37,138 bases of DNA from Candidatus Ghiorseimicrobium undicola (GTDB lineage: Bacteria; Omnitrophota; Gorgyraeia; Ghiorseimicrobiales; Ghiorseimicrobiaceae). The position numbers were made by a program, and so were the translations under genes. Position 1 is the first letter of the stretch, and each line of letters starts with the position of its first letter. Shown here in pieces: positions 1 through 35,851 of the stretch. The notes under the pieces are model-generated. The model was not told the DNA's origin, did not search any database, and saw only the letters and a list, made by a program, of their open reading frames with translations. The DNA lies in the NCBI GenBank assembly GCA_002796125.1, contig PCWA01000103.1, positions 1 through 37,138 on the forward strand, written 5' to 3'.

Positions 1-1975
1 CATTAATAAATTCGTCAAAGAATTGATCATAAAGGCCTAGATAGGCGTATGAAGACATGCCCAAACCATAAGAAGAATAAGGATTCAGACCAAAATCAAT
101 TGTCATTCTGAATATTGTCTCGAAATCTTTTCCGCTATTTACTGCCAGCTGTCTTAATTCTTTATCGTAGTATATCTTTCTTAATGCCTCATGAGAATTT
201 ATAAAGTTATTAAATTCCTCTCTATCCTTCTCTTCCTGCCACCAGCCGCTTATATCTTTCTTGCCTCCAAAACTATCGTGTAATACCTGCGATGTAGGGA
301 ATCCTAATCTTTGTTCGCCCAAAGCAATCAACTGATGCCCCCAGCCTAACGCTTTTAATTCCAATGCCTCAACAATTCTGTATATAGGCTCTCCGATTAT
401 GCCAAATACCGGGTGCTGAGACAAAGCATAGCTTGAATCAACTACTGCGCCTATTTCAGCGCCGATAATGGACATATAACCGAAGCTTGGCCAAAAGCCC
501 ACATATCTATAAAGCTCTAAGTATTGATTTTTGAAATAATGCTTGTTGAGAAGCGTGATTATAGGCGATAAATATGAAGTGAATATAACGCTTAAAGCTA
601 TTAAATCGTTAAAAAGGTAATATTTAATATCTTCGGATAGCGGAATTCTTGCGCTGCCGGTTACCATCTTTCTCTGTCCCGGCCTGCCCCTTAAGAAACG
701 CGCCATTTCTTTATCGTCTGACGTCAAATTCTCAACTCCATCTCTTTTCTTTATTAAAGCATCTATTGTAAAATTAGCTAAACCGTATTTTATCTTCGCG
801 TCAATATCTTGTTTCATATTTCTATAGTTTCCCAAAGATATCAACTTAAGCCCTATTACAAGCATGGCTATCCCAGCCAAGCCAACCACTGTATACGGTA
901 AGTGTGCAGCGCTTACAATGCTACTTATCGAAGGTAAGCCTATAATTTCAAATATGCTTTTTGAAGCGGTAGCCGGTGAAAACAAGAGCGGGAACGCTGC
1001 CTGCCCAAACACTCCGGAAATAACTGCTATACTTAACCTTGAACGCACAAAGCTAAATATACCCGCAAAGACAGGCAGGTTAATCTTTAAGAATATACCG
1101 ACTGCTCTAGGCAAATAATACGTGTATTTTCTTGTTGCCAGTTCTTTTTCGTATTTATCAGCCAACGCACTTATTTCTTTATTATTATCTATGCCCTCTT
1201 TCAATATTTCTTTTGCCTTCTCTGCGTAGAAGATGTTCTGCTTTATCTCTCTGCCAAAGAATTCTTCCGTGACTTTATATAATAACGGAATAAGCAGGCC
1301 TATAAACGCGCCTTTAATTACTAGCGGCCAACTAACCGCAAAACTCAAACCTATTAATCCGCCTAATGTTGCAAGATAAAATATTCTTACAGGTTTTTCT
1401 TTCAAGTAGCTTAGATAATCATTATATCCATAATGCGAAACTTTAATGTTCTTAGACAGATATTCTTCTAAGGCAAATAATTTTGCTATATTCATTAAAG
1501 AATTAGTTTCGGCAAAGCTTAAAGCCGAAGGTATTATCTGGCTTTTTATGAGATGTATAGTGAATAATAGGTACGAAATGCTCACGAACACGAATACTGG
1601 ATTAACCGCCAAAGAAATTATTACCTTAGCAGTTCCGGCGGCAAATAATCCTGCTGCATAGGGAATACCATAGAGAGTAATTACAAATAATCCTGCGCTC
1701 ATTAATACATAAGGAATATAGGGAAGTATTATTTTATCTTTGAGATTATTAATTAAAGTGTTGAGATAATTGTTGCTGGCGGATAAATCTAAAGTCACGG
1801 CTCCGATTAATAATGACACACCGGCAACAGCGAGCGGAATAAAAGCTGGGTTAATAAAAGATAATGCTGCTAATAGCGCTCCTATCGCCGGCGGGCCGAG
1901 GATCAAGCCTTTGTTTGAAATATCCTTGACTCTTTTCTCGTTTTGGGCGTTTTGAGCCAAAGGCGAAGAAGACCC
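1..1975 (-). other. Polytopic membrane domain, runs off the left edge
   Basis: After GSSSPLAQ there are about nine hydrophobic segments, including LILGPPAIGALLAALSF, LAVAGVSLLIGAVTL, IPYVLMSAGLFVITLYG, VFVFVSISYLLFTIHL, LATLGGLIGLSFAV, LPYTVVGLAGIAMLVIGL and LIALSVIFTSYLSPIITLL. The last ~150 residues before the edge are soluble, aromatic-rich and of unknown family (VGFWPSFGYMSIIGAEIG). No transporter family is recognised. Confidence 0.6.
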
Positions 1976-4900: not shown

Positions 4901-7900
4901 TGCGCCGAATATACTCTTAAATATATCATTGGTGAATCCTGCCTTATCTAGGTCGCCGCCGATTATCCATGCCGGATGATTATCAATATAAGCTTTTGTT
5001 ATGGCTATACCCGGCTCCCGGGGAAGAAGCTCTGTCTCTATCTGCCACCCGTACTTAGATGATTTTAGGGATAATTTAGATTTCTTGTAGGCGTCTTTAG
5101 CCGCGCGGCTAATTGAAACGGAATCTTTCTTTTCATTTTCTCCCATAGGGCTGGAAGACAATAACGCGTATTTTCTATACTTATCTATATCTATAATCTC
5201 AGCTTTTTTCGCGTTTATTAAATCAGCGGACAGCTTGTTAAGCTTTTCTACTGTTTGCCCTCTGATAACATCAATAACCGTTTCATCTATGCTGTTCCTG
5301 GCGCTTATCTCTGCCCAAATTATCAACGCTGACAATATGGATATCAAGCTGTGCTTTAATTTATTTATATCTGATCCGCGCGCGACGGACAGATAAAACT
5401 TCGTCATGTCCTCAAGGGCATAATATTCACGGCTGCCTATGATTTGGATAATATCCCTGCCTAAAACAGCTACATCATATAATTTCGCTTTCTTGAGCCT
5501 GTCTTGATTAAGTCTCTTAACCTCTGTAATGCGGCTAGTTAAGTCTTCTGTGTATCTTTTAAGTTCTTCCCCCAGCTGGTTAGCTATTCTTATTATCTCT
5601 ATTTTCTCTTTTTCATATAACGGCGAGTTGGCAGGCGAAGAAGATGCCGCCCGATCTTTCTTCGCTATAACTTCCGGCACTTCAAATTCATTCAGGAATT
5701 TATTAGCTTGCTTCGCCGGTATGGCCGTACCTGTAGTCGGATATCCTTTTGTATTAACATAAACCCCTTCTCCTTCTCCGCCATGACCCGGGACAAATAC
5801 AATATCACCCAACTCTTCGCCTTTCTTTTCCGCGATGTATTTAACCAGAATATAAATATCATTAAGAAGGCCATTCCAGCGTACTACATCTTTATTATTT
5901 AATAGCTCTTTCCCGCCGGGAAATTCCAGAAGAATAACTTCGTTTGCCTCAAAGGCGTTGAAGATATTTGATAGATCGCCTGCTGCGATATGATTCAATG
6001 ATTTTACCTTACCTTGCTTATCCAAAATGTACTTGCTTACATATCTGACTTGTTTTATAGTAAACTTAGCGGCATCATTCTCTTCTATTTCTTTGAATTC
6101 TACTGTCTTGCCTTCCCATGTAAAAAGCATCGGATGAGCAATCTTTATTTTCTTATCGGCGCCGTTTACATGGACTTCCACCAAAATATCTCTTTTTCCG
6201 TCAAAACCTTGCTCCATTGCTTTCTGGCGTAATTGATTAAAGTAATCATTGCTTCTATTTTCCGCTGGCTTAATAACGCGGACCCTAAGGTTTGCGTCTC
6301 TGCTATTTATGTAGCGCGCTAACATATTAGCAAGAGGGGCGGTTATGTATTTTTCTGATATGCTCTTCTTTCCTTCTTTTCTTGCCCTAAGCAATCCGAT
6401 ATTGAATACTTCCTTTATATCTTTAGCAATATCCACCACCGTATATTCAGTTTTCGGAAGATATTGCTTTATCGGCTTTTCTTCAATATGCCTGGCAACT
6501 GCCGGGGGAGCTTTATTGTGGAAAACATTTCTTATGTCAGTAAATTTAATATTTAGCGAACTAATTATAAATGTGGAAATTATCGCTATGATAACAACGG
6601 TAGAAGTTATGGCTATGAAAGCTTTGTTCAAGGGTTTCTTTATTTTTACTCCGGGCAGCTCTGTTGTCTTAACAGGCTTTTCTCTGCCTTTAGACTTCTT
6701 TTCCTGAGCGGCCTTTTCCTTCCTATATTGCTTAATTGCCTTTCTGGCGGCTTCCGTATCAGCTTTCTGTTTAGCTACCTGCTCCTGCATATAAATATCG
6801 ATTTCTTTCTGTGTGGCTTCTGCAACAGCGGCTTCTTCCTTGCGGGTAACTTCATTCTCCTGCACCTTTAACGCATTATACTTATTGTTTAAAGATACCC
6901 TCTGCTTCTCCTCTTGCGCCGCCTTTTCCTGCGCTCTTTCAATAAACGCATTATTTATCTGTTCTTCTATGCGGCCGGCTTCCTGCTCTGCTTCAGTATC
7001 TCTATTGGCATAATAAGATTCCTCAGCCTTATTCATCTTATCTTTTCTCTCTTTTTCTGCAGCATGGCGTACTTCCCAGGCGATGTCTTTTTCTATGGCT
7101 ATATCTTCATCTGTTTTCTCAGGCTCTACTATTTGTCCATCTATGATAACGGATATTTCTTTCATTTCTTCTTCCATGCCTTTAAGGTGATCCGGATATT
7201 CCTGGGCGTACCTTCTTAATCCTTCAAATAATTCTTTGGCTCCGGCAGCATCTCCTTCTGCTAACCTGCGCTTAATCATGATTAAAATAACTACGGGGGT
7301 CATGCCTGAAGTTTCACCCGCGGGAATTTCTTGGGCGGATTCCTCAGGCTCTACTATTTGTCCATCTATGATAACGGATATTTCTTTCATTTCTTCTTCC
7401 ATGCCTTTAACGTGATCCGGATATTCCTGAGCGTACCTTCTTAATCCTTCAAATAATTCTTTGGCTCCGGCAGCATCTCCTTCTGCTAACCTACGCTTAA
7501 TCATGATTAAAATAACTACGGGGGTCATGTCCGAAGTTTTATCCGCAGGCACTTCTTTGGCTGCTTCTTCGGGCCTGTTTTCATCTTTTATACTCTGTTT
7601 TTTAGCCGCCTCTTTTCTGTATTTCAAAATATTTTTGCGGGCGATTTCTGTCTCCTGCTTTTCCTTTCTCTTCTGCTCCTTTAAATACTGGCCAATTTCT
7701 TTCTCTGTTTGCTTAGCGGCTTTTCTAGATTCTTTATCAGCGCTTTTTGCCTCTACCTTCTTCATCTTTTCATATTCGCTCTCTAAAGATGCTCTCTGCG
7801 CGGCTTCTCTCTCTGACTTTTCTTTTGCCCTTTCGTTGAAGACTTTATCTATTTCGGCTTCAATAGATTCAGCTTCTCTCCCGCCTTCTTGCTTCTTAGG

Positions 7901-10900
7901 CAGGGCTGTTTTCCCTTTCTTAACGCCTACGCCTAAATCTTTTAGAAGATTATAGAATAATACAAAGAAGCCAACGAACAAAACAACGTAAGGAATATAT
8001 CTGTTAGCGGGCGCTTTTTCTATAGGCCTTATTTCTTTTGTCTCTAAAGCGGGTTTTTCTTTTAAAGCTTTTTGTGCGTCTTTTATGGGCGGAAGTTCTT
8101 TCTTCTCTGTTTTTGTATCTTTTATAAGCGGCTCGACCGGTTTTTCTTTCTTTTCTTGATCTATCTTCTTTATGGGTTCTTTCTCTTTGGGCTTTTCTTC
8201 CTTAACAGGCGCGATAGGCTCTGCTTTTTCGCCTGCTATGTAAGAATTCATGTTGATGGGGTATTCTGTATTGGCCTGGATGATATCCGGGGCATTCACT
8301 TTAAGCTGTTCGGCCACTTTTTCTACAAGCCCGCCTTTAGCCCAGATAGAAGTTTTCTCTATATCTATGCCTTTAGCCTTTAAATCTCTTAAGGCTTTAA
8401 TCACGGCATCGCCAAGCGTATTGTCTGCCGGGTAATCCTTGTGCCATTTCCCTGTCTTATAGTTGTAAATAGCTTTGGATATTTCTGTTATGACTGAGGC
8501 TTTGTATTCGGATTCCGCTTCTTTAACGACTACCGGCTCAGCCTCAGAAACCTTCTTTCCGATTTCAACCTTGGATATATTTTCTTCCGGCGCCTTTTCT
8601 ATGGCCACTGGCTGGACTGGCTCTGCCTTATCCGCCGCAACGATTAAAGCCGCGCTGTGATTATTTAACGCGTTATCCACAACTGGCTTTACTATATTAC
8701 CGATACTGCATCCAAATATGTCCAAAGCCATCAATATACCCATTGTACCCACAGATATTTTCTTAAATATACCCCTGCCTGAATCTTCGCGTTCTTCCAT
8801 GCTAGAAGAATAACCATGTAGACCGCGTAGGTCTACAGAGGTTAAATCGGCAGCTCTGTATTCTTTCTTTTTAGAATTAGTCAAAGGGGACGAACTTCTT
8901 TTTATTGCTATGGTTACATGCTCAGCTTTAATTATCCTAACTAAGTCTTCTCTTAGCTTAATGCTGTTTACCGGATCTTTCTTAGATTCAACCGTAAACT
9001 CAAAGATTATCTTATTAGCATCCTTAACAGGCCTCTCCATTTCAGTTATGTTATAATGAAGCTTTGTAAAGGCGGATGTTATATCACTTAATAAGTAATC
9101 TCTATCGTTGGCCTTGATAATAACTTTTCTTGTCCTCTCATTGTGAAAATAAGCGCGAAATTTCCCCGCATCAATAATGCCTAACCCTATAGCGGCATAA
9201 AGTTCTCCGGAATTTTCCAGGCCTTCTTTTTTCGCAAAGGATACCGCGATCTCTCCGTTTATTTCGCCCGCCAGCGGCCTCATGATATTTCGTCCAACAC
9301 CGCTCCATCCGTCTGTCTTGCCTTCTTCCATAGCCGCTATAATCAACTTTGCGCGCGGCAGTTTTACCAGAGCTTTAAGCGCGGCATAGGAATCTTTTGG
9401 CAAAGGGTCGGCTTTCACGTTTAGCGCAACAATCATGCCTGTTTCGAGCGCGCTATATTCATCCAATGGCTCGCGGGAAACCTCTCTAATCCCCACGTCT
9501 CCTTCTTTTGCGGCTTTCACGCGCAGTAATCCTGGGTATTGAGGATTGAGCTGATTTATTTCAGGCAGAGCAGCCAAATCTGCGGGATATGCGCCGGCCG
9601 GTAATTCAATTATCTGCATGATTATCCCAATCCATTTTTTTTCTAAATACATCGCATATATCTTATCTTTAAGCGATTGTTTGATTTGATAAAAGTTATT
9701 CCCAAAATCATACCCGAGCTTAATTCCATCGGATTTAAACACTTGATCATCCGCCAAGCCCAACAGGGCGTACAATCCTTTTATCTTATAGGCGGCATGG
9801 CTTAAAGGAGCAGGCAAATGTTCATCAACAGAGTATCCGGAAACATACTTCGCGTAATCCCCCTCTTTCATAACCATTATTTCATATGGAAGGGCTGTTT
9901 TACTGCCTGGGAATCCTTTATTAAATCTTAAATGATAGGCCTTGTAGCCTTTTTTATCTTCATTAATCGGTTTTATCGGCATAGGCAATATATTCTTAAT
10001 GAAAAGCCAAGAATTTATTGCGCCTACCACATCCTCTAACGCCCGATCGGTATTTTTAGTAATAATCCTAAAACCAATGACATCGTTTAAGGCCATTAGC
10101 TTCTTATCTAACACCTCTTTATCTTCCAGTGATTCCGGCATCGCGAAATATTCTTCTCTTCTGCCAGAGGATATCTTTTCGAATATGCTAAACGTCGTCT
10201 TTACCCTAGATGCGATATCATCCCAGTTTATCTCGACGCCCCTTTCATTTAAATATTGAAGCAGATCTTCCAACATGGCTTCCATCTCTACCTTCATTTC
10301 ACGATAAGAAAGCCCCCACACTCTCTTACGAGCTGCCCTTGCCATATCAAACTTGTTCTTATCTGGGTTCTTACTGCGTTCATAAATCTCAAATGCCTGA
10401 TTTCTTACATCTTCAAATAATGACGGATTATTCAGGCGGTTAGCCAGGTGGGCATAAACCTTCATCTCTTCATAACGGTATTCTCTCTCTTTGTCTCCGC
10501 TTCTTGCCAAAATCTCAAAACCGTATAATTTATCGGAAATTATAAGCAATAATGTAGACGGATCGCCCGCTAATTGTATAATCCTGTTTTGAAAATGCTG
10601 CAGGGTGTTTTCTCCTTTCATGTATCTGATATATTCACCAAGATACGGCCAGCTATTGTGGCTCATATTTAAGCGCCTTATCATTTCTGCTATTTTAACG
10701 GCATTAGTTTCATCTAGATTTGCCCTTGCGATTAAATCTCCCTTAACCAGCAAATCTAGTTGCTTATCATCCAGCTTATGAAATATGGCCGCAATTATGG
10801 GTAGAATATCATGCCCTTCGGCAAGAATATCCGACTCAGACAAGAAAGATGCTATTTCTAAAGCATGCTGCAGATAGCTTTCTTCGGGCGAAAACATCTT

Positions 10901-13900
10901 GCCGTTATATAATTTTATTGCTTCATTAATTGTCTTTAATACTAACTCTATTGCTTCTTTTGAATAATGCTGGCTGTCAAGCTCTGCTTCTATTTTACCC
11001 CGGAGGTAAATTTCCTTTTGGGAGAGCGCTGAGCTGCTGGAATTTTTAAGCGGTGAATTAGATTTTCCGCCTTCGCCAAGCCATGCTTTATAATGCATAG
11101 CGGCGACATCATCAGTAAGCAATAAGTAAGCGACTCTGTTTTTTCTCCTAAATAAGGTAGTTTTCTCGTTAAAGGCATGCGCCCCTTCTGCTCCCTTATG
11201 CCTCATTGCTTCCTTGCTTTCCATAACTTTCAGGTAACGCCTCTGAATCTGTTCCCTGGACGCGTCTTTAGAAATCCCCAAGATTTTGTATGGGCTTGGA
11301 TTTAATATCTCTTCATACAACTCTTTAAAAGACGCGTACTTTGGTAACTTAACTTTTCCTAGCTCGTAATTTATTTTTTCAAAAACATATACTGCCGGGG
11401 TCTTCTGCTTGCCGTTTATTTCTTTGATATCTTTATTGCCGAGGCCGACATAATAGTAAAGGTATAATTTTTCTCCTATCTTATTAATCCTCGCCTGCAG
11501 CAATTCATAGCTTAGGTCTTCGCCGGCCTTTTTATCTAAATTATCTATGCCGCCTTTTACCTGGCCAAAAGAAGGATTGACCACGCCGGCGTCAACAAGC
11601 TCGTTTACCACATAGATAATATAGAAGCTTAACGGATCTATTTCTAATCTTTCGTGGAGCGCGATAGTAACTAAATTTGGATATTTTTCATTAACCAGCT
11701 CCACGATATTGTTGATGAATCTCTTATAACTGCCTTTTGATTCCTTTGCCGCCGCAACAGCAATCACCCTAATGTCTTCTTCTATCGCATCCATTGATGG
11801 AGCTTTCTCATTTCGCTCGGCAGCGCTAGAAGAAGAATTAACTGGTGAATTTACCGCAGGAAGAGCCTCTCCCTTGTTAATTGTGAAGAGGCCCTTCGTT
11901 GTGTTCTCCGTTAAGGATGTAGATGGGTACTCTTTGCCTTGCGGCATTGATGCGGTATTTGATATCGTCGGCGAGTTCGCCTTCAACGCGTTCCCAACTG
12001 TCCGCGCGTCCGTTTCTTGAATAGACGCGGCCTTTCCCGTCTTCAAATACGAGAAATATACGGGTGTGGCCGTTGCCGTTGACTTTTGCGCAGGCAAATA
12101 TTGTCCTGTCGTACTTAAATTCAACGATGTGGTCAAAGCTAAGTTCGTTAAGCTGCGCTCTTGTAACCATAATACACCTCCATAGTTAATGGACACTTGC
12201 GTCATGCCATTTAGCGTAATGTGCCCATAAGTTAAAATGAGGGCCGCAGGAAGAAGGGTCAGTCCCCGGAGGTCAGGGGATCTTCCCGCGGTCCGCTCAT
12301 TTTTAGCTGCAGATATAACTCCTGCCACGGAAGGAATACCTTGCAGCTGGGTTAAATTTATAGCTGGAATTAAAAGCTGATTATTAGTTGTAATGAGGGC
12401 CTCATGGACAGGTATCCAGCCATAGAGGATAGCGGCTCCTCTTTCAAGGCCCTCATTAACAACAATAGTTGCAGGTAGTATTCCTGCCACGGAAGGACTA
12501 CCATACAACGGGGTCAAATATATTTTGATTAATTTAAATGGTTTTTCGTAGGATTTTAAAGGAGAATTAACAACAGAAAGGGCCTTAGCTGGCCGCGGAG
12601 GAGCCCTTCCTAAATAGACGAATAGAACCTCAAGAATTTTCGCGGATTTCGCTCTTTCGTTTATATAAGCGAAGAATTCAGGGATTCTATATTTCAGGCT
12701 CTTGCCAACAACAGCTGTAAAACTATGCTTATTGTATTTATTACTGCCGGAAGTATTACCTTCTTTTGTTTCTTTTACCGGTATTGCCGGGATCTTTCTG
12801 GCCGCACCCCGGGAATCTTCCTTATTTTCATCTTTTCCAGCTGACGCACTCTTAGAACCTGCCTTATTGAGCAAAACTATGCTAAGAATGCTTAGATAAG
12901 GAACATTTATACCTGCAATACTTCTCGTGCTTCTGCCGGTCGTAGGCAAGTATCTTGGGGTATTTCCTGCTACACCCCGGGCACCTGCCGTAACTTTCTC
13001 GGCTTCTTTTCCGGTTCTCTTTGATACACCTCGGGAACCTGCCTTAACTGTCGGTATCCCCGCTTTGGATACTTCCACCGCTGCCGGAATATTCGTCCAG
13101 CCAAGGGCCATGCTTACATTTCTTCCAAATTGTATTACTTTTTCGCTCGTGTATTTCGCTGCGCGACTGGCAATTGAGCGAATTGCCGCCGCGATCTTTA
13201 TAGGCCCGGCGCGCGCAGCCAATTCATTTCCGGCTGCTTGCGTAATAGATACCATCGGGCTTATAAAGTACTCATTAGTAGAAGCGTTGGCCGCTTTAGA
13301 AAATGCCTGCTGAGGCATGAGCATATCCGCTAGAGCCAATTGCTGCCCAGGCACCCGCGGTGTCTGAGCCGGCGAATTTGTTGCTGTGCCGGCAGCCGCG
13401 GCCGGTAGAGCGGCTGGATTACTATCAGCCCTTTCATCCGGCTTAGTAGATTGCTTATCTTCATTGGCCTGCTTTATAGGCATCAAAGAACCAAATAATA
13501 ACCTTTCAACAGACGGAAGGTGAAATATTTGTAAGCCGGGTAGGCGAGGCATTAGCTTCGGATCTACAATATCAATCACTTGTTTACTATTGCTTAATAC
13601 CGGAACATTCGACGCTCCAGGAGCATTACCCATGCCATGCGCGTTTCCGGATGTGCCAATAGTACCGCTTCCCGCGCTATCTCTTCCTATTGCCTCTGAT
13701 GACTCTACGCCATCAACTCTGTCTTCTTTTGAAGCTAAAACAGGGCTTTCTACAATTTTCTTATCTTCTTCTTTCTTGGCTATAGCAGAAGGCGGTTCAG
13801 GCGGCCGCTGGTTAGTGCCTACAGCGCCGGTATCTACTTTTGCTAATTCAGTATAATAATCGTTGCGCGCTAATTCTTCCTTGCCATTGCCGATTATTTT

Positions 13901-16900
13901 GGCGGCTATTTGCTTAACTTTTCCGGACAAAGCGGCTGCGGCCTTAACCACGCCTGTTTTAAGCTTATCTATCATGCCCGTCTCTATAGGCGAAGACATA
14001 ACTTTAAGCGCAACACCCGGCTTTGCGGCTACGGAAGCATCGCTTCTCGGCTCATAACCAGCTATAGAGCCGTTAATTTCATTGTTATTGCCTATTATCT
14101 GACTATTAGGCAGGCGGGAAAGCTCAGGAGCTTTCACAGCCATAGACATATAATTAGAGGTATCTGCCATCCTGGATACGCCCGGTAATTGATTCATGCT
14201 TGGTAGATATGCAGCACCGGTTAATCCATAATTAGATTCAGGCAGCTGGGCATTGCCTAAAATAATTAACGGCGAAGAGCCTTGCCCGAAGTATTTCTCC
14301 TCCTTAAATAACTGCTCCGCGTTTCTTGTCTGCTGCAGATAATAAGTAATATCTTTTCTAAGTTTTTTCGTACTATCATCTAGAGGTATAAGATCCAATG
14401 ACCCCTTAATCTCGCCGCCTGCGCTTATGAATTTCTTAACTTTGCCCAATCCGGCGTTATGCACGGCGGGGCCATACTTGGCATAATCGTTACCTAAAAC
14501 CTGCTTTGCTTCAAATTGTATAGCAGAAACGATTCTTGCCGTAAAAAGCCTGCCCTTTTCATTCTCCGTCTTAAGCAAGCCTGCTATTTCATTCATGGCG
14601 GATTTTCTATCTAAAGTTAATAAATAATTATAATCTGTAAGCCGGCTATCTTTATATGTTTTTATTATGTTATACGCGGTCAAAGGAGCTGTCTGGGAAT
14701 CACCTATTGTCGTCAGATAAGCGGCCTCATTTCTATTTAATAAACTTAAAGACTTATACTTTAGGCTGTCAATTAAATCTTCCCCTACTATCTTATGCCT
14801 GGTTTCTCTGTCAAAAATTGCCGCCACCCGCTCCGGGGCTATATTAAATTCCCGCGAGGCCTGCTTTATAGCGGATCCGTATTCGGCAACTATTGTTTCG
14901 GGGATGGCATTTTGGGTTTTATTATAATAACCAACGCCGGCATACAACAACGCGGCAAGCGAAGCTGTAACTGCCAGCGTAGTTAAAACGGTCTTTAAAT
15001 TGCTGCTTGAAGGAGAAGACGCGCCGATCTTAGAATAATTATTACGCCCTAAAGGAGAATTAGCTGCTGCCGGAATTTCACTAACCGTTGATTTGAATTT
15101 ATCTAATGATGGATACGCGCCTTCCGGGATAGGGACAAAATTATTAGCGGCAACTTCATTAAAATCAACTCTAATTTCTGAATCTCCGGAATGTATAACG
15201 CTAACCGTAACTCTCCCGGAGCTGGTTAAATTATGAAATATATTATTTACTTCCTTATAATCATTGCTATTGATAACAACTGTTTTTGTTATAGTGGGCA
15301 GATTTTCACTATCACCGATGTTAATTTTTTGCAAGCCCCCGATCTTGCCTGCTTCCGGCTGAGGCGAGGCATAAAATGTATTCTTAGCAGAATTAATGAT
15401 ATCCGTTAGCCTGTCCAATAAAGGGTTAGCTTCTATTAGGTTATTTAATTTGCTTTCGTTTAATCCATAGTGTATAGCCCTGGCAAAGCTCTCGGTAGCA
15501 TCTGAATATTTTCCCGCCGATAAATTCGCTATACCAAGCCTGGCGTAAAGATCAGGATAAACCGCATGAGAAATACCTGCCGGAGTGTTATTTATCGCCA
15601 AGTGGTAACTTTCGCCGCTGGCATCAAAATCTCCGCGCTTGTAATCTATGTCGCCTTCATTCATAACCTTAGCAACGCTTCCCGCTTCTACCTCTAAACT
15701 GGCAGCGCCTGCAGAAACCACAGAGTTTAAAGTAAAGGTTAAGAGCGCGGCGGGAATTATTACTCCGCTTGCGAGGAAATTCTTTATTTTCGCCGCCAGA
15801 GGCGAATTTACAGCCGGCGAAGAAGCGCCGCGCTTTGCAAACATAGCTGGTTCTTCCTGCCCGCTGGCAAATTTATTATAATATTTCTTGAATCTATTGT
15901 TGTGAATCTTGGTTTCAGGCACACCTAAGCTGGAAAGCCATTTTTCAGGGCCATGTTTTTGTAATGCTTTTATGATGGGTGCGCGGCCACGGTTATACAT
16001 GGCAACCGCCGCCTGTTCAAACCTATAATTATGGCTCGCATCTTCAAAGAAATGAAGCGGCTTCTTAACTAAAGAGAATCTACCTTCGCTCTTGGCCACC
16101 AGCTGCTGGCTGCGGGCAAAATTCCAGTCAAGGTAAAGCTTGGCTGTGCCGACATTAACATTGTATTCCCATGAATCTTTGACTCTCTTGCGGTCAACTT
16201 TATTGCCCACCAATTTACGCAAAACAGAAGCATTAGGCGTATTCTTTTTTATCTGCCTGTCAATCTCATCCATAGCTATCGGCATAACCTGCATCATGCC
16301 CACGGCTCCGTCTTCGGATAAATTTAAAGAGCCATCTACATCAAAATGATGGAAATCGCTCTCTGCTCCGGCAACGGCAAGTATATACCGCGTATCCATG
16401 CCGCTAATCTTCGCCGCGTTTTCAAAAACAGAATATCTTATGCCTGCTTGTTTAACTTTTGGCTGGCTTTTTTCTATTGAAACATTAGGAACAATAAAGG
16501 CGCTATCAACTATTTTCTGGGTTTCTAAACTCAGGGTTTTTACCTTTGCTTTTGTCTCTGGCAGGTCCGCGTCAATGATGACACGGGTGAATTTCTTGCC
16601 ATCTTTCCTATATCCAGAAAGATAAATATCATATCCTTGCTTATTTAATTTCTCGGCAAAAGCTAAGGCATTATTTTTGTTGGCAAAGGAGCCGGCGACA
16701 ATATCATAGCCCGGCTGCTGCTGAGTTTTAGATGCCGCGGCCGCAAAAGAAGGAGACAAGAAAGATAAAGACATAACGCCCAATAAACCCAATGTTATTA
16801 TTTTATTCTTTAGCGCGGCAGGAATGCTGTTGGTTATTATTTGCTTGGGAGAATATCCAAATATATCTGAGAAATAATCTGTACGCATGGCAGGAGAATT

Positions 16901-19900: not shown

Positions 19901-22900
19901 GTCCTTCTTCGCGTCCATATAATGCGAATATCCGCCTGAGAAAAGCCCCTGCGTAAAATGATCCGTGGAATTAAGCGCGGCAGCTCCGGCAAAGATAAAA
20001 TTAATCCTTGAATAATCCTGCCTTGCCTTCTCAAAATTCGTCTGCCTTATGCGCCTTCCCATGCTAAAAGAAGGCATAACACCAAAATCCTTCAATAGCC
20101 ATGGATAGCTTGCGTCCAGGAAAGTATTTTCAAGCGGACTTAATCCTGCAGGCGAGGCATTCTTTCCGAATAAACCTTTCATCTTATTATAACCCCACGG
20201 TAATAACCCGCCCTGTGCATCTATGGACTTAAACTTATTATCAAACCACGCCTGCATGCCGCCCAGGCCTGAGCCGAGGTATACGCTGCCGCCGGGGCCT
20301 TTACGGGAAGATCTATTCTGCGAAGACGTGCTGTTTACAAGCTTTAACTCAGGCGGCAAGGCGGGTAGGTCAAATTCTAAGCCATTTCCTAAATCAGCAG
20401 TAATTCTCTCTGAAGAATCTACAATAATTTCTGTAGGCAAGGAAGGTAGTGAGCCTTGCGTGTTTATTTCATTTGAACTCTGCGTTATTTGCGTAGAGCT
20501 GATATCTCTATTATCATCCATCCGCTTTCTAGCCCAATCAGCATAAAGCGTTTTATATTTTTCAATTATTGCCTTGTTATTCTTAGCAAATTCTGCATTA
20601 GACCCGAGCAATCCTTCTAATTTATTTTTGAGCTCATTATATTTATTTTTTGATACGCCCGTAAGGTTTAAATTCAATCCTTCTAAAGCATAATTTGATA
20701 AAAGGTCAGCGGTGGTTTGGTTATTAATTCCCGGTATCGTACCATCTAATAATGCGTGGCCTATTTCATGGAATAAAATATCAGCTATTTCCGTAAAATC
20801 TTTTCTAGACATAGCTTGATCATCTACGGAAACTATCCTATTTTTGTATGCCCCAAATTTATCGTGGGTTCCATCCGCTAAAGCTATTTGCCTTATTCTA
20901 TCTTTAAATTTATTTTGAAATTTAGGAGGTAAGTGTGAAAATAGAGCGGTGGTTAACTCATTAACAAAATTTATGTAAATTTCTGCTTCTCCGTCACGAT
21001 AGAAATTCATATAATCTTTTATCTCAACCGGATTCGATACCAAAGTAGATATTTTTCTATTTCTCCAACTATTAATCTTACCTTTTACCTTATTGTAGCC
21101 CCACGGCAATAACCCGCCCTGCGCCTCTATAGATTTAAACTTGTTATCAAACCATGCTTGCATTCCGCCCAGGCCTGAGCCGAGGTATACGCTGCCGCCT
21201 GGTATTTTTTGGAAAGGTATGTTTTGAGAGCTAGAAGGCGAAGAGATACTGGAAGTATTTAATCTATCTCCTCTTCTTGCGCTTTCGGTTAAAGCCGCCA
21301 TATCAAGGCTGGATGCCATTCTTCCCATCAAGGCAAAATCAAGATTTAGAGATGAAGAATTAAGCGTCAGCCTGTTAAGCGTTACGTTTTTTAAAGTTTT
21401 CTTCCTTTTAAGCTGGGATAGCTGTTCGGAAGTCAAATTATCCTGCAGGAATTTATTCGCCTCGTCATTTTTAAGCTCTCTTCTCTGGTTATTCGCGAAT
21501 GTTACTGTGCTGATTATGTCTTTGCCGTTATCTTTATAGGTTATTCTATTGATCGTAAGGGGCTTTATGCCTTTTGAGCCCGCCGGTAAATCTATAGTGG
21601 TTATGCCTGTTGAGACCAAATCCTGTGCTTTATTTTGAGGTAATATATTAACCAATAAATCTAAGGCCGCCTGCCCTCTGGCATTGGTATTGCCGGCGCC
21701 GTTAAGCATCGCTTCCTTATAAAGATAAACGGCGTTATCATAAGAATAATGCTGGTCATTTGATATATCAGACATATCTATGCCTAACTGATTTGCCATA
21801 TTTATCTTATGCATCTGGGTCTCAGCCGCCATGGAAAGCTCCTTATTGGTCGTGCTGAATACCCTGCCGTCGGTAAGTTTTATCTCTATCTTTGTTTCCT
21901 GCGGAAAGTTTTCTTTGTTGGCCAGGAAAGAAAGCGTGGCGTTATTCGGCATGTTATTATTGGGAGCGAATAGCGTCTCAATGGCGGAGACGGTATTTTC
22001 TAAATCGCTCTGGCCGAAACTTACGGCGTCTTTTCCGATAAATTCCATGTCGCTTATTTTTACGCCCTGTTTAAATGCCAGAGAAAGGCTGGAATTTAAA
22101 AATACGCTTCTTTTACCAATAAAGTCGGTAAGTATTTCCTGCATAGACTCGTTAAAGGCATTTGCCTGGACGGAATTTCCGCCGAACATACCTGTTGCCT
22201 TTAAAAGCCCGTCGGCAAAGATGGCTTCTTTAAAGAATTCTTCGCCCATGAACGTATGCACCCTGCCTAAGACAGGCGTCTTATTAAAGAACCTGCCTCC
22301 GATAATGCTGTCTCCGGCTACCTCGTCTAAATACTTCATTGATTTGCTGAATACCGGTATACGGTGGAATACCGGCTCAAGCAGGGGCCTTACAAAGTGC
22401 AGGGAGAAACCAAACGCCGCGCCGGTAAGCGCGCCATATTTGGCTTGTCTAGCGGCATTGCGGGCGAATAAATTCCAGGTGAAATCAGCGGCGTTTCCGT
22501 TATCGTCATAGATCATGGACATCTGGTTCAGGCTTGATGCCGCGCCAGCCAAACCCTTATTCGCGCGCATACCAAATACATATGTAAGCACTGACTTTGT
22601 CGCGCTATCTAACGCGCCAAGTTCCTGCCCTTTAGCGGCATATAAATCTTTCATGTAAGGAACCAGCCCATTATAATAGCCTGCCTGGATGCTATACATT
22701 ACCGGCTGGAATACCGCCAATATTTTTGCTACGGATGCCGACTGCTGAATGCCGCTTTGCAATATACTGCCAAAGCTATAACTGGTATTATAATAATTCT
22801 TAAGACGGGAAACGGAACTGCTCAAAGACATATCTGTTGCGATACCAGACGCTATGCCTTTTGGCTGACGCGCAATCCGCCCGTATAAAGACACCGGCTC

Positions 22901-25900
22901 ATAAACAATTTTACCTGCCGGGGTTACTGTTCTTGTCCGCCACGCCTTAACCGCGCCTAATGTTCCGATAATGTGGGCGATATTTATACCGGTATTAATT
23001 TTACTGTAAGTACCATATGAAATGTCTCCGTCCAATAATGCTTTGTTATTATAAACTTTAGCGCCGACAGCCAATCCCTGTACAAAAACCTGGGTAGGTA
23101 TCTTGCCTATGCCCCGGCCTAAGCCGCGGGCAAGAGAACCGACAACTGGAACTTTGCTGATATAGCCTGCTGCCCTGCTTAATGCTGCAGAACGCGGCAT
23201 AACATCTCTCACGCGGTCTCTGAACAACTCGCGAATTATACTGCTCTTTCCTAATTCCGGCCTGCCACCCCTGCCCAATGAAACCATAATCATAATCGGG
23301 ATCATTTCTTTGGCTATTATGGAGAGGGTTTTAATTGTCTCTGATTTGCCGGAGAAATGATCCAATCCTTTGTATACGGCATATGTAGCGCCTACGCGCG
23401 GTATCGCCCTTACCACGCTGTCTTTGGCATATTTTAGGAAAAGGTGTGTCCCCATGCGCGAGGATATCGGATTGCCCGGGAAAACACGCCTAAAGGCCAC
23501 GCCTAATACAAAACTTTCCAGCATGGATGAGGAAGAAGGCAAGTTATGATTCATCATAAATTGAATACTGGCATTAGCCATTGTCGCGGTAGCGCCGGGG
23601 ATAATAATCTTCTCCATTGCCTCAAATCCTGCCTGTGAAAGGAATACCCTGGCTTTAAATAATCTGGAAGAGGGCAGTAAATTACCCATACGCATATCGT
23701 TCATGCGCAGGCGGGATAATGCGTTCTTATTTACATAGGAAACCTTAGTCCCGAAATTATTCACCACCGGCACATATCTTCCGCCGGAAATCGCTTTATA
23801 TATATGGCCTTCCGACGCAAAAGTCCCGAAAAATCTCTCGGCGTTTCTGCCCGCGGTATTTAAAGCCGTGTATGCCGCTTCTGACTTTATGCCTCCGGCA
23901 AATAAACTTCTTACGGCAGTAGAAAATCCTTTTTGATTTGCGATTACCTTAAAGGCAAGCGCGCGCGATGAAAAAATACCGCCGCTCTCTATCCTGTTTA
24001 CAACATTGCTGATTATCTTCATCTGGGCGGCATCATCCAGGATACCGGTAATTCCTTTTGCCGCCTGCGCCACTCTGCGCGGAAGATTTTTAACAGAAAG
24101 AACAAATCCGTTTTCAACCGCCTTTCCTATAGTCATGCCGGAAGTCACGCCGCCCGCCGCCCTGAACGCGCTTCTTACGATACCGGCGCCCGTCATAGCT
24201 AAAGGAATGGATTCAAAAGCAATGGCGGCTCCCTCTCCCAATGTATAATCGTCCATTGCCTTCTGGTTCCTTAATTCCATAGCATAATATGCCTTCTGCG
24301 AAGGATTAGAAGCATCCAATGCTAATTTATTTAAAACATAGTTTGCCTGCGAATCATCAAGATAGCCAATCTTAACATCCCCTGAATCGTCCGTGTATAT
24401 AACCGGCCTGTCGTTAATGCCTAAACGCAATAAGCCGTCGCCTTTTTCCGAAAGAAGATGAATGGTATTCCCTTCTATTGCACCATCTTCCTTTCCTGTT
24501 AAAGAATACCAGCCATCGGCAATTTCCCTGCCTCTGGCAAGCTTTGCGGCTACAGCGTAAGCTTTATTCATATTTTCATTTCCATAATATCCGCCCACGA
24601 GAGCGCTTAACGCCATCACTGCCAATGCCGTGCCTGCCCCAATATTCACCCCCGGGATTAACATCGCTGTTCCAAGCCCTGTGAGCGCGATCCCCGCTCC
24701 TTTTGTAGCGCCTCCAACCGTATCATTTAATGAACCCAGGCCGCCAGCCGCGCCTACATGAAAATAATCTGCCATCCTTGAATCAAAATTATCCGCGGTT
24801 AGGCTCTTGCCACCGGCAAACCTCATATCATCTAATTTAGTAAGGCCGTAGTCGGAAAGATGCAATTTCCTATCCTTTAATTGGCTAATAATCAGCTCTT
24901 TATTTCTGCGGCTATCGCCTACTATAACCTCGCCTTTTTTAGTTATTAAAGCGAATATATCACTATTATCCTGCAGGCTCTTTATATGTATAATAGAGCC
25001 GCCTTTCATCACATCAATCATGCCCTGTTTTATTCCGTTTATTTTTCCGGAAGGAGTCAATATAAACTGCTCGCCTTTATCGGTAATAATATCCGGTAAG
25101 CCCGTGCCGTCGTTTCTTCTTAACCCGTAGACGGGTTTTCTATCTTTAAAATCAACGATGGCAAAATGATAATCGCGCTCGCCGAAGGCATGCGTATATG
25201 CCTGTCCGCCAATACCAAATCCTTTATAATTAAAGCTTAAATGCTGGCCTTCTTTTAACATCCCCGCGCCGTCCTGTGAAAGAAGTTTTTCCGCGGCGGA
25301 TAAATCGCCGGTGGATTCGGCTAAATTATAGGCAGCATTAATGTAAATCTGATTAACCGGGTTGCCACCAACGGTTAGCGGCTGTTTGTTGTATAAATTA
25401 TCCTGCATCCAGGAAAGAGAAGCTACCGGCACGTTTTTCTTGGCAAAATCAAGGCCGATAATTTTATTATAATCTTTATTTTCTTTTCCGCGCTCGGATG
25501 AATCTGTATATACTGCATTAAACATATGATAAGGTGCCGAGGCCGTGGTAAAGAAATTTTCTACGCCTGTTAACGCTTTATCATCTGAGGCGAAAGATTT
25601 TGCCCATCTGTCAAAGCCTAAAGTCTGCACGACACAGTTGCCGCCCACAAGGCTTATCTTAAACTTATCGGAACTTGAATCGGCAGGCAGCACCTGTGGC
25701 ATCACGTCTTCTGTGGGGAAACTTACCATCTTATATAAGGCCGCCATCAGATAAATAAACTTCTTGTCGCTATCATTTATTACTTTTTTATTTTGAAGGG
25801 AATTAAGCATACTGCCTATTTTATTATCCATGTCTTCTACTTTTGTAATGCCTAATTCTTTCATGTAGTTCTTTAAGGTAGTCCTTTCTAAGACCTTCAT

Positions 25901-31900: not shown

Positions 31901-34900
31901 ATCTTTTAACCCGCTTAAAAGATCCGAAGGCATGGCAAGCTTTAATTCCCTGTCTTGCGGATTAACATTGAACGCCAGGATGCTGTGCGTGTTAACATTT
32001 AATCCGGTAATTTTACCGATATTCATAAAGCCTCTTTCAGGTAAAGAAGTGTATTGTTGACGCGGAGAATCAGGCAGCGAAACAGCATAGGACATTTTAT
32101 TGTTATATATAGCAACCTGTGGCTTATTGCCGACGAGCGCGCCAAGGCCGTAACCCACCAGACTTCCGCTGGATGCGTCATACACCTTGGCATTTGCGGC
32201 AAGAAAACCTATTAATACGGGATTTAACTTATCTCTTACGTCAGTAATCTGCCAGTAGCTGGCTTTTTCCTTTATACTGTCTCCTCCGAATTGCAATCCG
32301 TTATATGTATAATCTACACCGATTTTCTCACCTATTCCCTTGGTTGAGTCAAATTTCCACGGGCGGTCTTTTCTTAACCTAAAGAAGCTGTCTTTATCCC
32401 CGAATATTGACCAACGGAAGGTATCCGCGTGTGTCGCCTCAACACTATCCAAGGTGGTATAAAGCGTGAGCCCTGCCTGCTTATGATATCCCGCGGGTTT
32501 AAAGTTATCGTCTGTTAACTTGTTCTGTAGCAGTATCTCGCTTGTCCCATCCTTTAAAATTAATGAGCCGTCTTTGGTTATCTCAAGCTTTCCGATTTCC
32601 TTTCCTGCTTTATCTAAAAGAAGCGCGCCGTCTTTTATTGGTTCTGTAGCGTTTAGTTTATCTTGGATATATTTCGGCAATTGATTACCTAAAGAAATTT
32701 CTGTATTGCGGTCTATCCCCGGCTTTCTCGCAAACCTTATTACATTCAGCGCGTTAGTGGCTATGTCATTCCAGTTCTCAACTGCTCCATAATGAAAACT
32801 ATCGGCAAAATGCTGGCCAAGCGCGCTGACTACGCCGATATTTGAATTGGCAGCATTGGTGCCTACCTTTACAATGCTCGCGATATGATTGTAGTAATTA
32901 ATGCTGTCGCTGGGGTCAACCGGCCCGCCGAAAGATAAAGCATTCTTTGTGACATCCCCCACTCTGTCAAACGTGTTTTGCCAGAATGATTTATCGTTGT
33001 CCGTAACAAAAGCCGCCTGCGCTGCTGAAGATGTCCACAGGGTCGCGTTGGACGCCGTAACCGGATCCCAGCTTTTCTCGTTGACAAGGTAGTTTCTCAA
33101 ATAGGCATTGCCTAAAGAAATCGCGCCCTGTTTAATGCCCTCAAAAAGATAATTCGGCAGTTCTGACGCCTTAAACGGCCCGGATAAAAATGTACTGCCC
33201 AGCGTTTCAACCGCAGTACCCAAGCCGGAGTAATATATCTCATAGCGCGCCATCTTTGAACTGACGTATTCGTCAAAATCATCGTCATCTCTATCTTTGT
33301 TATCTGTAAGTCCTCTATCCCTAGCTTCTTGTCTAAATTTTTCTTCTTTGCGGCTGCGGTAATGTTCTTCTATTAAGATAGCCGGAGCCTTGATGGCAAT
33401 TTGTTTCAATACTTTCCCGTAGCTGGAATTAAACACGGGATCCAATGCCCCCGCGCCTGCCAGGCCGCCGATACCCGCGCCGATGGCGGCGTAAGTCCAG
33501 CGGTTTTTCTTACTGGCTGAAGCATATCCGATACCCGCGCCGATAACTCCGCCGGCCAAAGCCCTGCCAGATGTGCTGCTAAAAAAGTTAGAAGACGACG
33601 CGGGGGAGCTGGAAGCTATCGCACCTGACACATCTTCGTATTTAAGATAATCGGCGTCTATTTGGGCCATTAATTTATCAGCGGAGCTAGGGCCTAACTT
33701 ACTTAATAGATACCCCACGCCCGCGCCGCCCACAGCGCCCAAAGCCGCGTATTCCGCGCCGTGTTTCTTGCCGCCTATAGCGTAACCTGCGCCCGCGCCG
33801 ATTAAAGCGCCGGTCAAAGTCTTATTTTGAGAGAGATAATTTAGTGCTGCATTACCCAGATTGGATAATGAGCCTGTTTTATATATTCCGTATCCAAGGC
33901 CGGCACCACCTACTGCGCCGATAGTTGCGTAAGTTACGCCGTGCTTCTTGCCGCCGATGGCATAGCCAAGGCTACCGCCGACCAAGGCGCCGGTTAGTGT
34001 TTTATTCTGGGATAGATAATTTAAAGCTGAACTGCCGAGGTTGGATAACTTATTATAATTATACCCTGCTAATCCGCCTGCGCCCGCGCCGATGGCGGCG
34101 TATTCTGTGCCATGTTTCTTGCCGCCTATAGCGTAACCTGCGCCTGCGCCGATTAAAACGCCGGTTAGTGTTTTGCCATATGTACTATTTAAGAAATTAT
34201 CCAGGGCTGAAGTCTTATTTACAGAATTACCTAAATTACTGAGATTTGACGAATTATTGGCCAAAGTTATATTTGTGGGAGTCTTAAACATTAAATCCTG
34301 CGCGCCGTGCTGCAATGTCAGCCCGACTGCCATAGAGGCTACCTGCGCCCGGCCCCTTGAGCCCGGTTTATCCGCGTCATACAAAGACAAATATACCCGT
34401 GTGGCAGCTGCTTGAGCAATACCGCTTGCCAACGGCTGTAATATTATTCCGTTAAAAATAGCGCGAGTAGGAGATATGCCATTGCTCATATTGTAAGAGA
34501 TAGACCCTTGTTCGGATAAGCCGCCCAAAGATCCAACCGCGCTTGCTGCTATACCGCCCCAAAAGGCGCCTGCCAACTGTGCCCTCTGTTGAGACCAGCC
34601 ATCACTCATAGCCTTACCTTGAAAATAAGTCTGGACGGCATACTGCGCAGTGAATTGTCGCAAACCCGTTGTAATAGATGAGCCAAAATTGCTTACAAAC
34701 GCGCTTGGTAGAGCGCTCAACGTATTGCCGATGTTAGTGGTAAGGCTGGCGTTTTTCTGCCATGCTGAACTATACGCGCTCGACACCGCGGATGAAAGCA
34801 AGTTTATTCCTATGTTCATCAACAAAGCGGTGCCCATCTGCTTTTCCCACTGCTTCCAGTTGGCGGCATTGGAATAGTGCGCGCGCCTTCTTTCCCGGCC

Positions 34901-35851: not shown

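What the first reader, a model, noticed from the sequence alone, without database searches (positions are those of the whole stretch)
1..35851. A single ORF of at least 11,950 codons, still open at the window edge
Line-by-line inspection finds no in-frame stop over 35.85 kb, and recognised domains on both sides of every region lie in the same frame. A stop-free run this long cannot arise by chance. Known family context: giant proteins occur in Omnitrophota, but this combination of modules is not one I know.
Basis: partly seen in the sequence, partly recalled or inferred. Interest (0 to 1): 0.95.

Follow-up and report, generated by a model that had tools for sequence, protein, structure and literature searches.

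The report
Giant gene chaining punctuated whole proteins
A bacterium of the little-known phylum Omnitrophota carries one gene of at least 11,950 codons whose second half looks like a string of complete ordinary proteins separated by a short repeated signature, as if many proteins were made as one chain and then cut apart.

Summary
One ORF, 35851..2 on the minus strand, ATG start, 11,950 codons, no stop, runs off the end of the contig, which is the whole window. It belongs to a family of giant genes in Omnitrophota whose members share an N-terminus (signal peptide plus C39-like cysteine peptidase); most that could be checked lie downstream of Tad-like genes. Giant ORFs in this phylum are already published.

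The new part is the second half. From aa ~6,300 the chain consists of modules divided by a tetrapeptide, [S/N]-S-P-[A/V/I/L]: 18 copies against 1.7 expected here, and strongly enriched in eight other giant ORFs, including that of Ca. Velamenicoccus archaeovorus. The motif avoids Pfam domains (0 of 113, then 2 of 44 inside), and modules begin near the natural N-termini of known proteins (glycogen synthase, CheY, epimerase, Tat preproteins). Many catalytic motifs are intact; selection is purifying in the one pair tested.

Best reading: a polyprotein, probably a predation weapon, cut at this motif. Cleavage is inferred, not shown. Nine other long giants of the family show no such enrichment. Existing mass-spectrometry data from the LiM culture could test it.

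The parts
2..35851 (-). giant ORF, at least 11,950 codons, 3' end beyond the contig
35762..35851 (-). signal-peptide-like N-terminus (aa 1-30) ending in the family signature F-[LVI]-P-[EQD]-Q-[VA]-[AS]-[WQ]-A
   Evidence: alignments A1/A2
34952..35548 (-). C39/papain-like cysteine peptidase domain (aa 102-300), Cys122 and His257 invariant in 35 rows
   Evidence: Pfam; A2; model and PDB fold search
33452..34186 (-). glycine-zipper repeats (aa 556-800)
   Evidence: Pfam; DNA tandem repeat 33730-34174
25112..25654 (-). weak candidate second Cys/His protease-like stretch (Cys3406, His3562), by eye only
   Evidence: no Pfam hit
20756..20770 (-). HExxH zincin motif (aa 5028)
   Evidence: motif only
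17579..17593 (-). HExxH zincin motif (aa 6087)
   Evidence: motif only
15824..16891 (-). module SPOR + lytic transglycosylase SLT (aa 6321-6676) with internal signal-peptide-like segment; homologous to a G073 module at the start of its motif run
   Evidence: Pfam; catalytic Glu and GMMQ
15062..15799 (-). module with signal-like segment and TPR-like repeat (aa 6685-6930)
   Evidence: (below Pfam cut-off), sequence
14279..15010 (-). module with TM segment and SLT-like motifs (aa 6948-7191); no NCBIfam hit
   Evidence: motifs
11060..11842 (-). module with J-domain-like stretch (aa 8004-8264)
   Evidence: Pfam (below cut-off)
8894..11050 (-). RelA/SpoT-like module: HD_4 - RelA_SpoT - ACT (aa 8268-8986); RelA_SpoT and ACT scores below Pfam's cut-offs
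   Evidence: Pfam; NCBIfam (far below its cut-off)
5642..8884 (-). module with lipobox-like start, TM segments and coiled-coil-like sequence (aa 8990-10070)
   Evidence: LMBR1 below cut-off
1970..5146 (-). histidine-kinase-like module (aa 10236-11294), H, N, G1 and G2 boxes present
   Evidence: Pfam
2..1960 (-). multi-TM module (aa 11298-11950), cut by the contig end
   Evidence: sequence; no Pfam hit
16889..16900 (-). motif NSPA (aa 6318)
15812..15823 (-). motif SSPA (aa 6677)
15797..15808 (-). motif NSPL (aa 6682)
15050..15061 (-). motif NSPL (aa 6931)
15008..15019 (-). motif SSPS (aa 6945)
14267..14278 (-). motif SSPL (aa 7192)
13985..13996 (-). motif SSPI (aa 7286)
13367..13378 (-). motif NSPA (aa 7492)
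12557..12568 (-). motif NSPL (aa 7762)
11966..11977 (-). motif NSPT (aa 7959)
11840..11851 (-). motif NSPV (aa 8001)
11048..11059 (-). motif NSPL (aa 8265)
8882..8893 (-). motif SSPL (aa 8987)
5630..5641 (-). motif SSPA (aa 10071)
5618..5629 (-). motif NSPL (aa 10075)
5144..5155 (-). motif SSPM (aa 10233)
1958..1969 (-). motif SSPL (aa 11295)
36055..36939 (-). upstream gene, 294 aa, T2SSF family (TadB/TadC size), 203 bp before the giant ORF
   Evidence: Pfam; synteny

Best explanation
The ORF is a real gene of a family widespread in Omnitrophota. Members start with a head, about 4,300-6,300 aa where I could measure it: an export signal, a C39-fold cysteine peptidase, then largely uncharacterised sequence. 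A cargo part follows, made of many complete, otherwise ordinary proteins in one frame. In this gene and several relatives the cargo proteins are separated by [S/N]-S-P-[A/V/I/L]. Most likely the chain is a polyprotein: translated as one, then cut at or near this motif by a specific protease, releasing cell-wall hydrolases near the head and signalling and metabolic enzymes behind them. The likely use is attachment to and consumption of other cells, together with the Tad apparatus encoded next door. Shown here: the ORF, the family, the Tad synteny, the motif and its position between domains, selection on the protein in one related pair. Inferred: cleavage, the protease, export, and predation.
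For: ORF and frame. Family: N-terminal matches in 14 of 59 genomes, the window's own included; 80 loci in a genome collection, which is also the per-call maximum; 76 of 80 ORFs open to the end of the held DNA, 39 of 80 at least 3,000 aa; 16 of 16 genomes chosen for long contigs have ORFs of 3,936-39,957 aa with this N-terminus. T2SSF (Tad-like) genes upstream in 52 of 62 loci with 3 kb or more upstream, 40 of 62 ending within 3.5 kb on the same strand. Motif [NS]SP[LAVMIT], observed vs shuffled: window 18 vs 1.7, C107 15 vs 0.7, LiM 44 vs 3.4, G027 24 vs 1.9, G062 57 vs 3.2, G064 20 vs 1.3, G073 20 vs 1.9, G072 19 vs 0.9, G059 13 vs 1.5. Background: 2 in 47,216 aa, 1 in 25,022, 2 in 23,058, 23 in 147,590. 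Motifs inside Pfam domains: 0 of 113 vs 15.3 expected; G062 2 of 44 vs 6.7. Module ends: G062 glycogen synthase module 6-498 of 507 match chain 3d1j 2-475 of 477; REC 1-106 match CheY 1tmy 1-108; epimerase 15-359 match 2c20 3-328 of 330; LiM oxidoreductase 8-174 match 3hnp 4-170. Tat-like signals in motif-bearing giants: 7 of 7 found by my pattern lie 4-29 aa after a motif. Codons at the motif vary and the word is mostly frame-locked on the coding strand. Residue after Pro is A/V/I/L/M in 211 of 251. dN/dS between LiM and G027 0.11-0.42 in eight zones, 0.40 in the zones around motifs. No ribosome-site signal after motifs: 18 of 220 vs 12.1% of 4,400 controls.
Against: No cleavage product has been seen by me. 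Nine other long giants of the same family show no enrichment, although several carry modules homologous to those of G062, so the motif is not needed for the architecture. The N-terminus with the C39 region occurs in both kinds, so the peptidase is not specifically tied to the motif. Not every module join carries a motif (G062: about 390 aa beyond the epimerase without one). An unsegmented test went the other way: motifs lay inside alignments between giants 66 times vs 48.1 expected, probably because conserved joins are aligned through. TM segments after motifs are only mildly enriched, 18 vs 11.1, p 0.027. Some short Ser-Pro linkers are expected between domains anyway. TCG is over-used at the second Ser (101 of 268 vs 75 of 337 at other Ser-Pro), which a purely protein-level reading does not explain.
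Confidence: 0.55

Rival explanations
1. An uncut modular surface or secreted megaprotein: SSP-[AVIL] is merely a short hinge between folded modules, as interdomain linkers are in other multi-enzyme chains.
For: Motif sits between domains; sequence around it is depleted in order-promoting residues only over some 10-15 positions; related giants do without it.
Against: A fixed tetrapeptide is more specific than a flexible linker needs; residue after Pro is restricted; interior Tat-, lipobox- and Sec-like starts behind motifs make most sense if modules are separate; cytoplasmic and exported protein types alternate in one chain.
Confidence: 0.25
2. A polymorphic-toxin-like delivery protein: conserved head, exchangeable cargo delivered into prey and released there by proteolysis, the cargo acting as effectors. 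This does not exclude the best explanation; it is a stronger claim about where the cut modules act.
For: Conserved head with C39 region, variable cargo; cell-wall hydrolases among the cargo; RelA/SpoT-type domains are described as toxin domains (PMC3482391, passages); in five genomes a glycogen synthase copy in a giant ORF stands beside an ordinary one; Tad neighbour.
Against: Cargo includes many housekeeping-type enzymes with no evident toxic role; immunity genes were not looked for; size far above toxins known to me.
Confidence: 0.4
3. Internal translation starts or many overlapping in-frame genes rather than one product.
For: Modules look like whole proteins.
Against: No excess of ribosome-binding-site plus start after motifs, 18 of 220 vs 12.1% of controls; the joins are open and under purifying selection in the pair tested.
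Confidence: 0.06
4. Stop-loss fusion of decaying genes, or misassembly.
For: MAG contig ending inside the ORF; related scaffolds are broken by N gaps (G059, C107).
Against: The closed genome of LiM has the same kind of ORF (a third of it is masked here, its 39,678 aa are published, PMC10066038 passage); G062 has 30,185 aa without gap and with its stop; purifying selection; many catalytic motifs intact; same head in dozens of assemblies.
Confidence: 0.03

Closest known systems
Giant ORFs of Omnitrophota (Seymour et al. 2023, PMC10066038, passages read; Kizina et al. 2022, PMC9004380, not held), including the 39,678-aa protein of Ca. Velamenicoccus archaeovorus LiM
   Same: Same phylum by relatives, same class as LiM by the tool's kinship label, homologous N-terminus, LiM has the same punctuated cargo
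   Different: The passages read describe few domains, transmembrane helices and adhesion; a common C39 head, a separating tetrapeptide or a polyprotein is not mentioned in those passages
Polymorphic toxins (PMC3482391, passages read)
   Same: Variable domains, peptidases for release, RelA/SpoT-type domain listed as a toxin
   Different: One C-terminal toxin per protein as a rule (recalled); here many whole enzymes per chain
MARTX toxins (recalled, not tested)
   Same: Several effectors in one long chain, cut by a built-in cysteine protease
   Different: No MARTX family among the Pfam hits; a few effectors against dozens here; different protease fold (recalled)
Viral polyproteins (recalled)
   Same: Whole proteins in one ORF, separated by a short protease site
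   Different: Bacterial chromosomal gene, unrelated proteins, much longer

Membership tests
Omnitrophota giant-ORF family | ORF over 20 kb without stop | tested here: met
Omnitrophota giant-ORF family | common N-terminus: signal peptide plus C39-like domain, shared with LiM | tested here: met
   aligned with LiM (L041, L131)
Omnitrophota giant-ORF family | Tad-like genes upstream | tested here: met
   one T2SSF gene before the contig ends; a pair could not be checked; relatives
C39 peptidases | fold and catalytic Cys/His | tested here: met
C39 peptidases | cleavage of a double-glycine leader | not testable with these tools
   no biochemistry
Polyprotein | whole proteins in one frame separated by a recurring site | tested here: met
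   the end-to-end matches are from relatives, not from the window itself
Polyprotein | proteolytic release of modules | not testable with these tools
   needs peptide or N-terminus data
RelA/SpoT synthetase-hydrolase (module) | HD hydrolase motif | tested here: not met
   HD replaced by HK, HG or KG in 6 of 6 modules
RelA/SpoT synthetase-hydrolase (module) | synthetase acidic residues | tested here: met
   conserved D and E in 6 of 6; their role is recalled; Pfam score 21.9 is below cut-off 27
Polymorphic toxins | adjacent immunity gene | not tested
   gene end lies outside the window

The most novel reading that the evidence does not exclude
A general gene-expression strategy new to bacteria: dozens of unrelated, complete enzymes are encoded as one chromosomal polyprotein of 10,000-50,000 residues behind a shared export/protease head and are released at a lineage-tuned S-S-P-aliphatic site. 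Modules are gained, lost and reordered between species.
Probability: 0.4. Interest if true: 0.95.

Novelty: new variant of a known kind. Interest (0 to 1): 0.82.

Why it matters
The function of the largest predicted bacterial proteins is open because they seemed to be single molecules with few recognisable domains. If they are polyproteins, the size puzzle dissolves into many normal-sized proteins, and their cargo becomes a readable list of what an epibiotic predator makes. The motif gives exact predicted cut sites, so the question becomes testable with existing mass-spectrometry data.

Tried and rejected
Relatives of the last 750 aa: none in 59 genomes but itself. Overlap of contig ends C107/C93: none. 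DNA-level repeat as cause of the motif: codons vary (60 motifs in LiM use 35 different 9-mers) and the commonest DNA word is mostly frame-locked on the coding strand, though TCG is preferred. Alternative separators in motif-less giants: R-[AS]-P-[PTAS] is weakly enriched in three (9 vs 2.0, 13 vs 3.2, 6 vs 1.9) and little in three others (2 vs 0.9, 4 vs 2.2, 3 vs 1.6), left as a hint. RelA/SpoT module against PDB sequences: no hit at 0.001. Single origin of the motif: not supported. On an N-terminal tree of 22 the label needs 7 changes, at least 5 forced by well-supported branches, but that tree counted five short, uninformative ORFs as lacking it; with the 17 informative rows it needs 5, at least 4 forced, and is no more clustered than shuffled labels (long branches, some weak support). 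Internal translation starts: not supported. Motif avoidance in unsegmented alignments: not supported. Papers on polyproteins in this group: none found in the held library (searches; preprints not held).

Full report
OBSERVATION. The ORF is real: minus strand 35851..2, 11,950 codons, ATG, no stop, open at the contig end. The window is the whole contig G000:C93 of a 1.83-Mb, 115-contig assembly, 94% complete. Frame 0 has the best codon score in 385 of 395 windows and no other same-strand frame ever wins.

HEAD. Pfam finds a C39 peptidase and glycine zippers near the start, then nothing from aa ~800 to ~6,380. The first ~330 aa match in 14 of 59 genomes, the window's own included; two of the 14 are marginal, and the matches lie in open frames of 970 to 39,687 aa. 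A search of one genome collection with nine such N-termini returned 80 loci, also the per-call maximum; 70 of 80 record titles contain 'Omnitroph', three name genera I recall as Omnitrophota, and seven carry other or no labels. Of the 80, 76 run open to the end of the held DNA, 39 reach 3,000 aa, and four stop at 409, 415, 1,704 and 2,158 aa. Sixteen loci chosen for long contigs all have ORFs of 3,936-39,957 aa. Cys122 and His257 are invariant in the 35 rows that I aligned. The model (pLDDT 82) matches C39 peptidase domains best, of a PCAT transporter and ComA, with E-values of 1.6e-4 and weaker. Hence a C39 fold with its catalytic pair; activity untested.

NEIGHBOURHOOD. The gene upstream in the window is T2SSF, 294 aa. 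With a profile made from six such proteins (the window and three loci of the set served as seeds), 52 of 62 loci with at least 3 kb upstream have T2SSF-type genes upstream, two of them in 51 of the 52, and 40 of 62 have one on the same strand ending within 3.5 kb. Between these genes and the giant other genes can stand (OprB, DUF1016). Two T2SSF genes of ~290 aa in tandem are the mark of TadB/TadC (recalled). Seymour et al. report Tad genes and giant ORFs as separate symbiosis traits in the passages I saw (PMC10066038).

MOTIF. The most enriched tetrapeptides of the window protein are NSPL and SSSP. [NS]SP[LAVMIT] occurs 18 times vs 1.7 expected in shuffles within 500-aa blocks, 16 of them after aa 6,250. 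I then measured 23 ORFs from 22 genomes. Nine are enriched: window 18 vs 1.7, C107 of the same genome 15 vs 0.7, LiM 44 vs 3.4 (13,333 of its 39,687 residues are masked), G027 24 vs 1.9, G062 57 vs 3.2, G064 20 vs 1.3, G073 20 vs 1.9, G072 19 vs 0.9, G059 13 vs 1.5. Fourteen are not, with 0 to 7 motifs and at most about 2.4 sd above the shuffles; five of these are short or truncated near where the cargo starts (G002, G003, G005, G046, G074), nine are long and informative (G033, G057, G060, G061, G065, G066, G069, G070, G071). Ordinary ORFs hold 2 in 47,216 aa, 1 in 25,022, 2 in 23,058 and 23 in 147,590 aa. In the eight enriched ORFs with a start, a few isolated motifs occur earlier but the sustained run begins at aa 4,300-6,300, i.e. 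after a head of similar length. Of 251 motifs, 211 have A, V, I, L or M after Pro; lineages differ in preference: SSPA in LiM, SSPV in G062, SSPI in G073, SSPL/NSPL here. Median spacing is 260 aa over 211 intervals, 29 of them under 40 aa, so motifs sometimes come in pairs.

MODULES. In the window: SPOR-transglycosylase, TPR-like, a second SLT-like module, J-domain-like, RelA/SpoT-like, coiled-coil, histidine-kinase-like and multi-TM modules. In relatives and C107: deaminase, glycerophosphodiesterase, methyltransferases, Fis-type HTH, phosphorylase, kinases, response regulators, CheR, GGDEF, epimerase, glycogen synthase, CofD, PEP-utilising enzyme, oxidoreductase, M48, M23; the chunks sent covered the motif zones, not whole ORFs. 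I listed domains by hand from those tables (only the best stretch per family is shown, fixed chunks cut some, and some hits are below Pfam's cut-offs). Motifs inside domains: 0 of 113 vs 15.3 (sd 3.9) by circular shift; in G062, scanned afterwards, 2 of 44 vs 6.7, one being NSPQ and one at the rim of a coiled-coil hit. The G062 glycogen synthase module fits chain 3d1j from residue 2 to 475 of 477, the response-regulator module fits CheY from residue 1, the epimerase fits 2c20 3-328 of 330, the LiM oxidoreductase fits 3hnp from residue 4, the C107 deaminase fits a RibD-type chain from residue 15. In a LiM LOG-type module the best stretch reaches residue 207 of a 210-residue chain 13 aa before the next motif. 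All seven Tat-like signals that my pattern found in motif-bearing giants lie 4-29 aa after a motif; in two giants without enrichment it also found one each, 88 and 3,975 aa after an NSP/SSP. Three of four lipobox-like sites lie within 60 aa. Catalytic motifs are present in many modules checked; some patterns did not match, such as one GlgA and one transglycosylase pattern. Whole modules recur between species, e.g. response regulator G062/G064 78% over 120 aa, SPOR-SLT window/G073 41% over 314 aa; two LiM modules have partial matches in G064 in the opposite order, which paralogy could also give. Between LiM and G027 one slot flanked by the motif holds different proteins.

TESTS THAT WENT AGAINST OR GAVE LITTLE. 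Alignments between giants made without cutting at motifs contain motifs more often than expected, 66 vs 48.1 (sd 9.5), probably because conserved joins are aligned through; the segment matches were made on pre-cut pieces and should be read with that in mind. TM segments after motifs 18 vs 11.1. The motif is scattered on the N-terminal tree: 5 changes among 17 informative rows, at least 4 forced; G062 and G060, which cluster together, differ (with 22 rows gave 7 and 5, but counted uninformative rows). Motif-less giants carry homologues of some modules.

RELA/SPOT. Of 16 genomes searched with PF04607, six have a match, each in an ORF of 3,581-37,731 aa; four of the six pass Pfam's cut-off, the window's own and G064's do not; no free-standing match was found at this threshold. 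A protein search had also found a homologous stretch in a 1,989-aa ORF of G031, which PF04607 missed. All six lack the HD aspartate and keep the synthetase D and E. In four motif-bearing giants (window, G073, G059, G064) the RelA domain starts 228-283 aa after a motif; in G033 and G023 it does not. By contrast 15 of 16 genomes have a glycogen synthase in an ORF of 461-506 aa, and six have copies in ORFs above 5,000 aa, five of them beside a normal one. So cargo can be an extra copy or, as far as these searches see, the only one.

HOW IT WORKS (inference). The signal peptide directs export; the head may anchor or process; cargo modules are released at SSP-[AVIL]. The enzyme that cuts is unknown: the C39 region occurs in both kinds of giant. 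Cell-wall enzymes near the head (window, G073, G027) and signalling or metabolic ones behind fit a weapon that first opens and then reprograms or digests a neighbour. Peptides of the LiM giant ORF were reported 3-fold up in attached cells (PMC10066038, passage). No step of this is shown here.

NOVELTY. Giant ORFs of this phylum are known (PMC10066038, PMC12057145, PMC11573180, passages). I found no paper in the held library that describes a separating motif or a polyprotein (searches; preprints and most subscription papers not held; a preprint on giant genes and cell-wall degradation is known to me by recall and by citations only).

Noticed in passing
window 7118-7561: A 225-bp unit present twice in tandem at 94% inside the ORF: a recent in-frame duplication of 75 aa.
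   Followed up: no
window 20168-20293 and 21080-21202: A ~40-aa segment (PGGSVYLGSGLGGMQAWFDNKFKSI...) occurs twice about 300 aa apart, almost identical, with double-glycine pairs; pieces of it were not found in eight other giant ORFs checked.
   Followed up: partly
G000:C107 (L053-L055): Second giant ORF piece of the same genome, 9,102 aa plus a 1,328-aa frame beyond an N gap, entering from the contig's right end: a candidate continuation of the window ORF (total would exceed 22,000 aa)..
   Followed up: partly
G059:C3: ORFs of 14,792 and 37,731 aa appear to abut across a short N gap on one strand; if one gene, about 52,500 codons.
   Followed up: partly
16 Omnitrophota-related genomes: No free-standing RelA/SpoT match (PF04607, E up to 0.001) in any of 16; matches were found only inside ORFs of 3,581 aa or more, plus a homologous stretch in a 1,989-aa ORF of G031.
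   Followed up: partly
G060, G066, G033 giant ORFs: R-[AS]-P-[PTAS] is 3-5 times more frequent than expected and in one case precedes a lipoprotein-like start: a possible alternative separator.
   Followed up: partly
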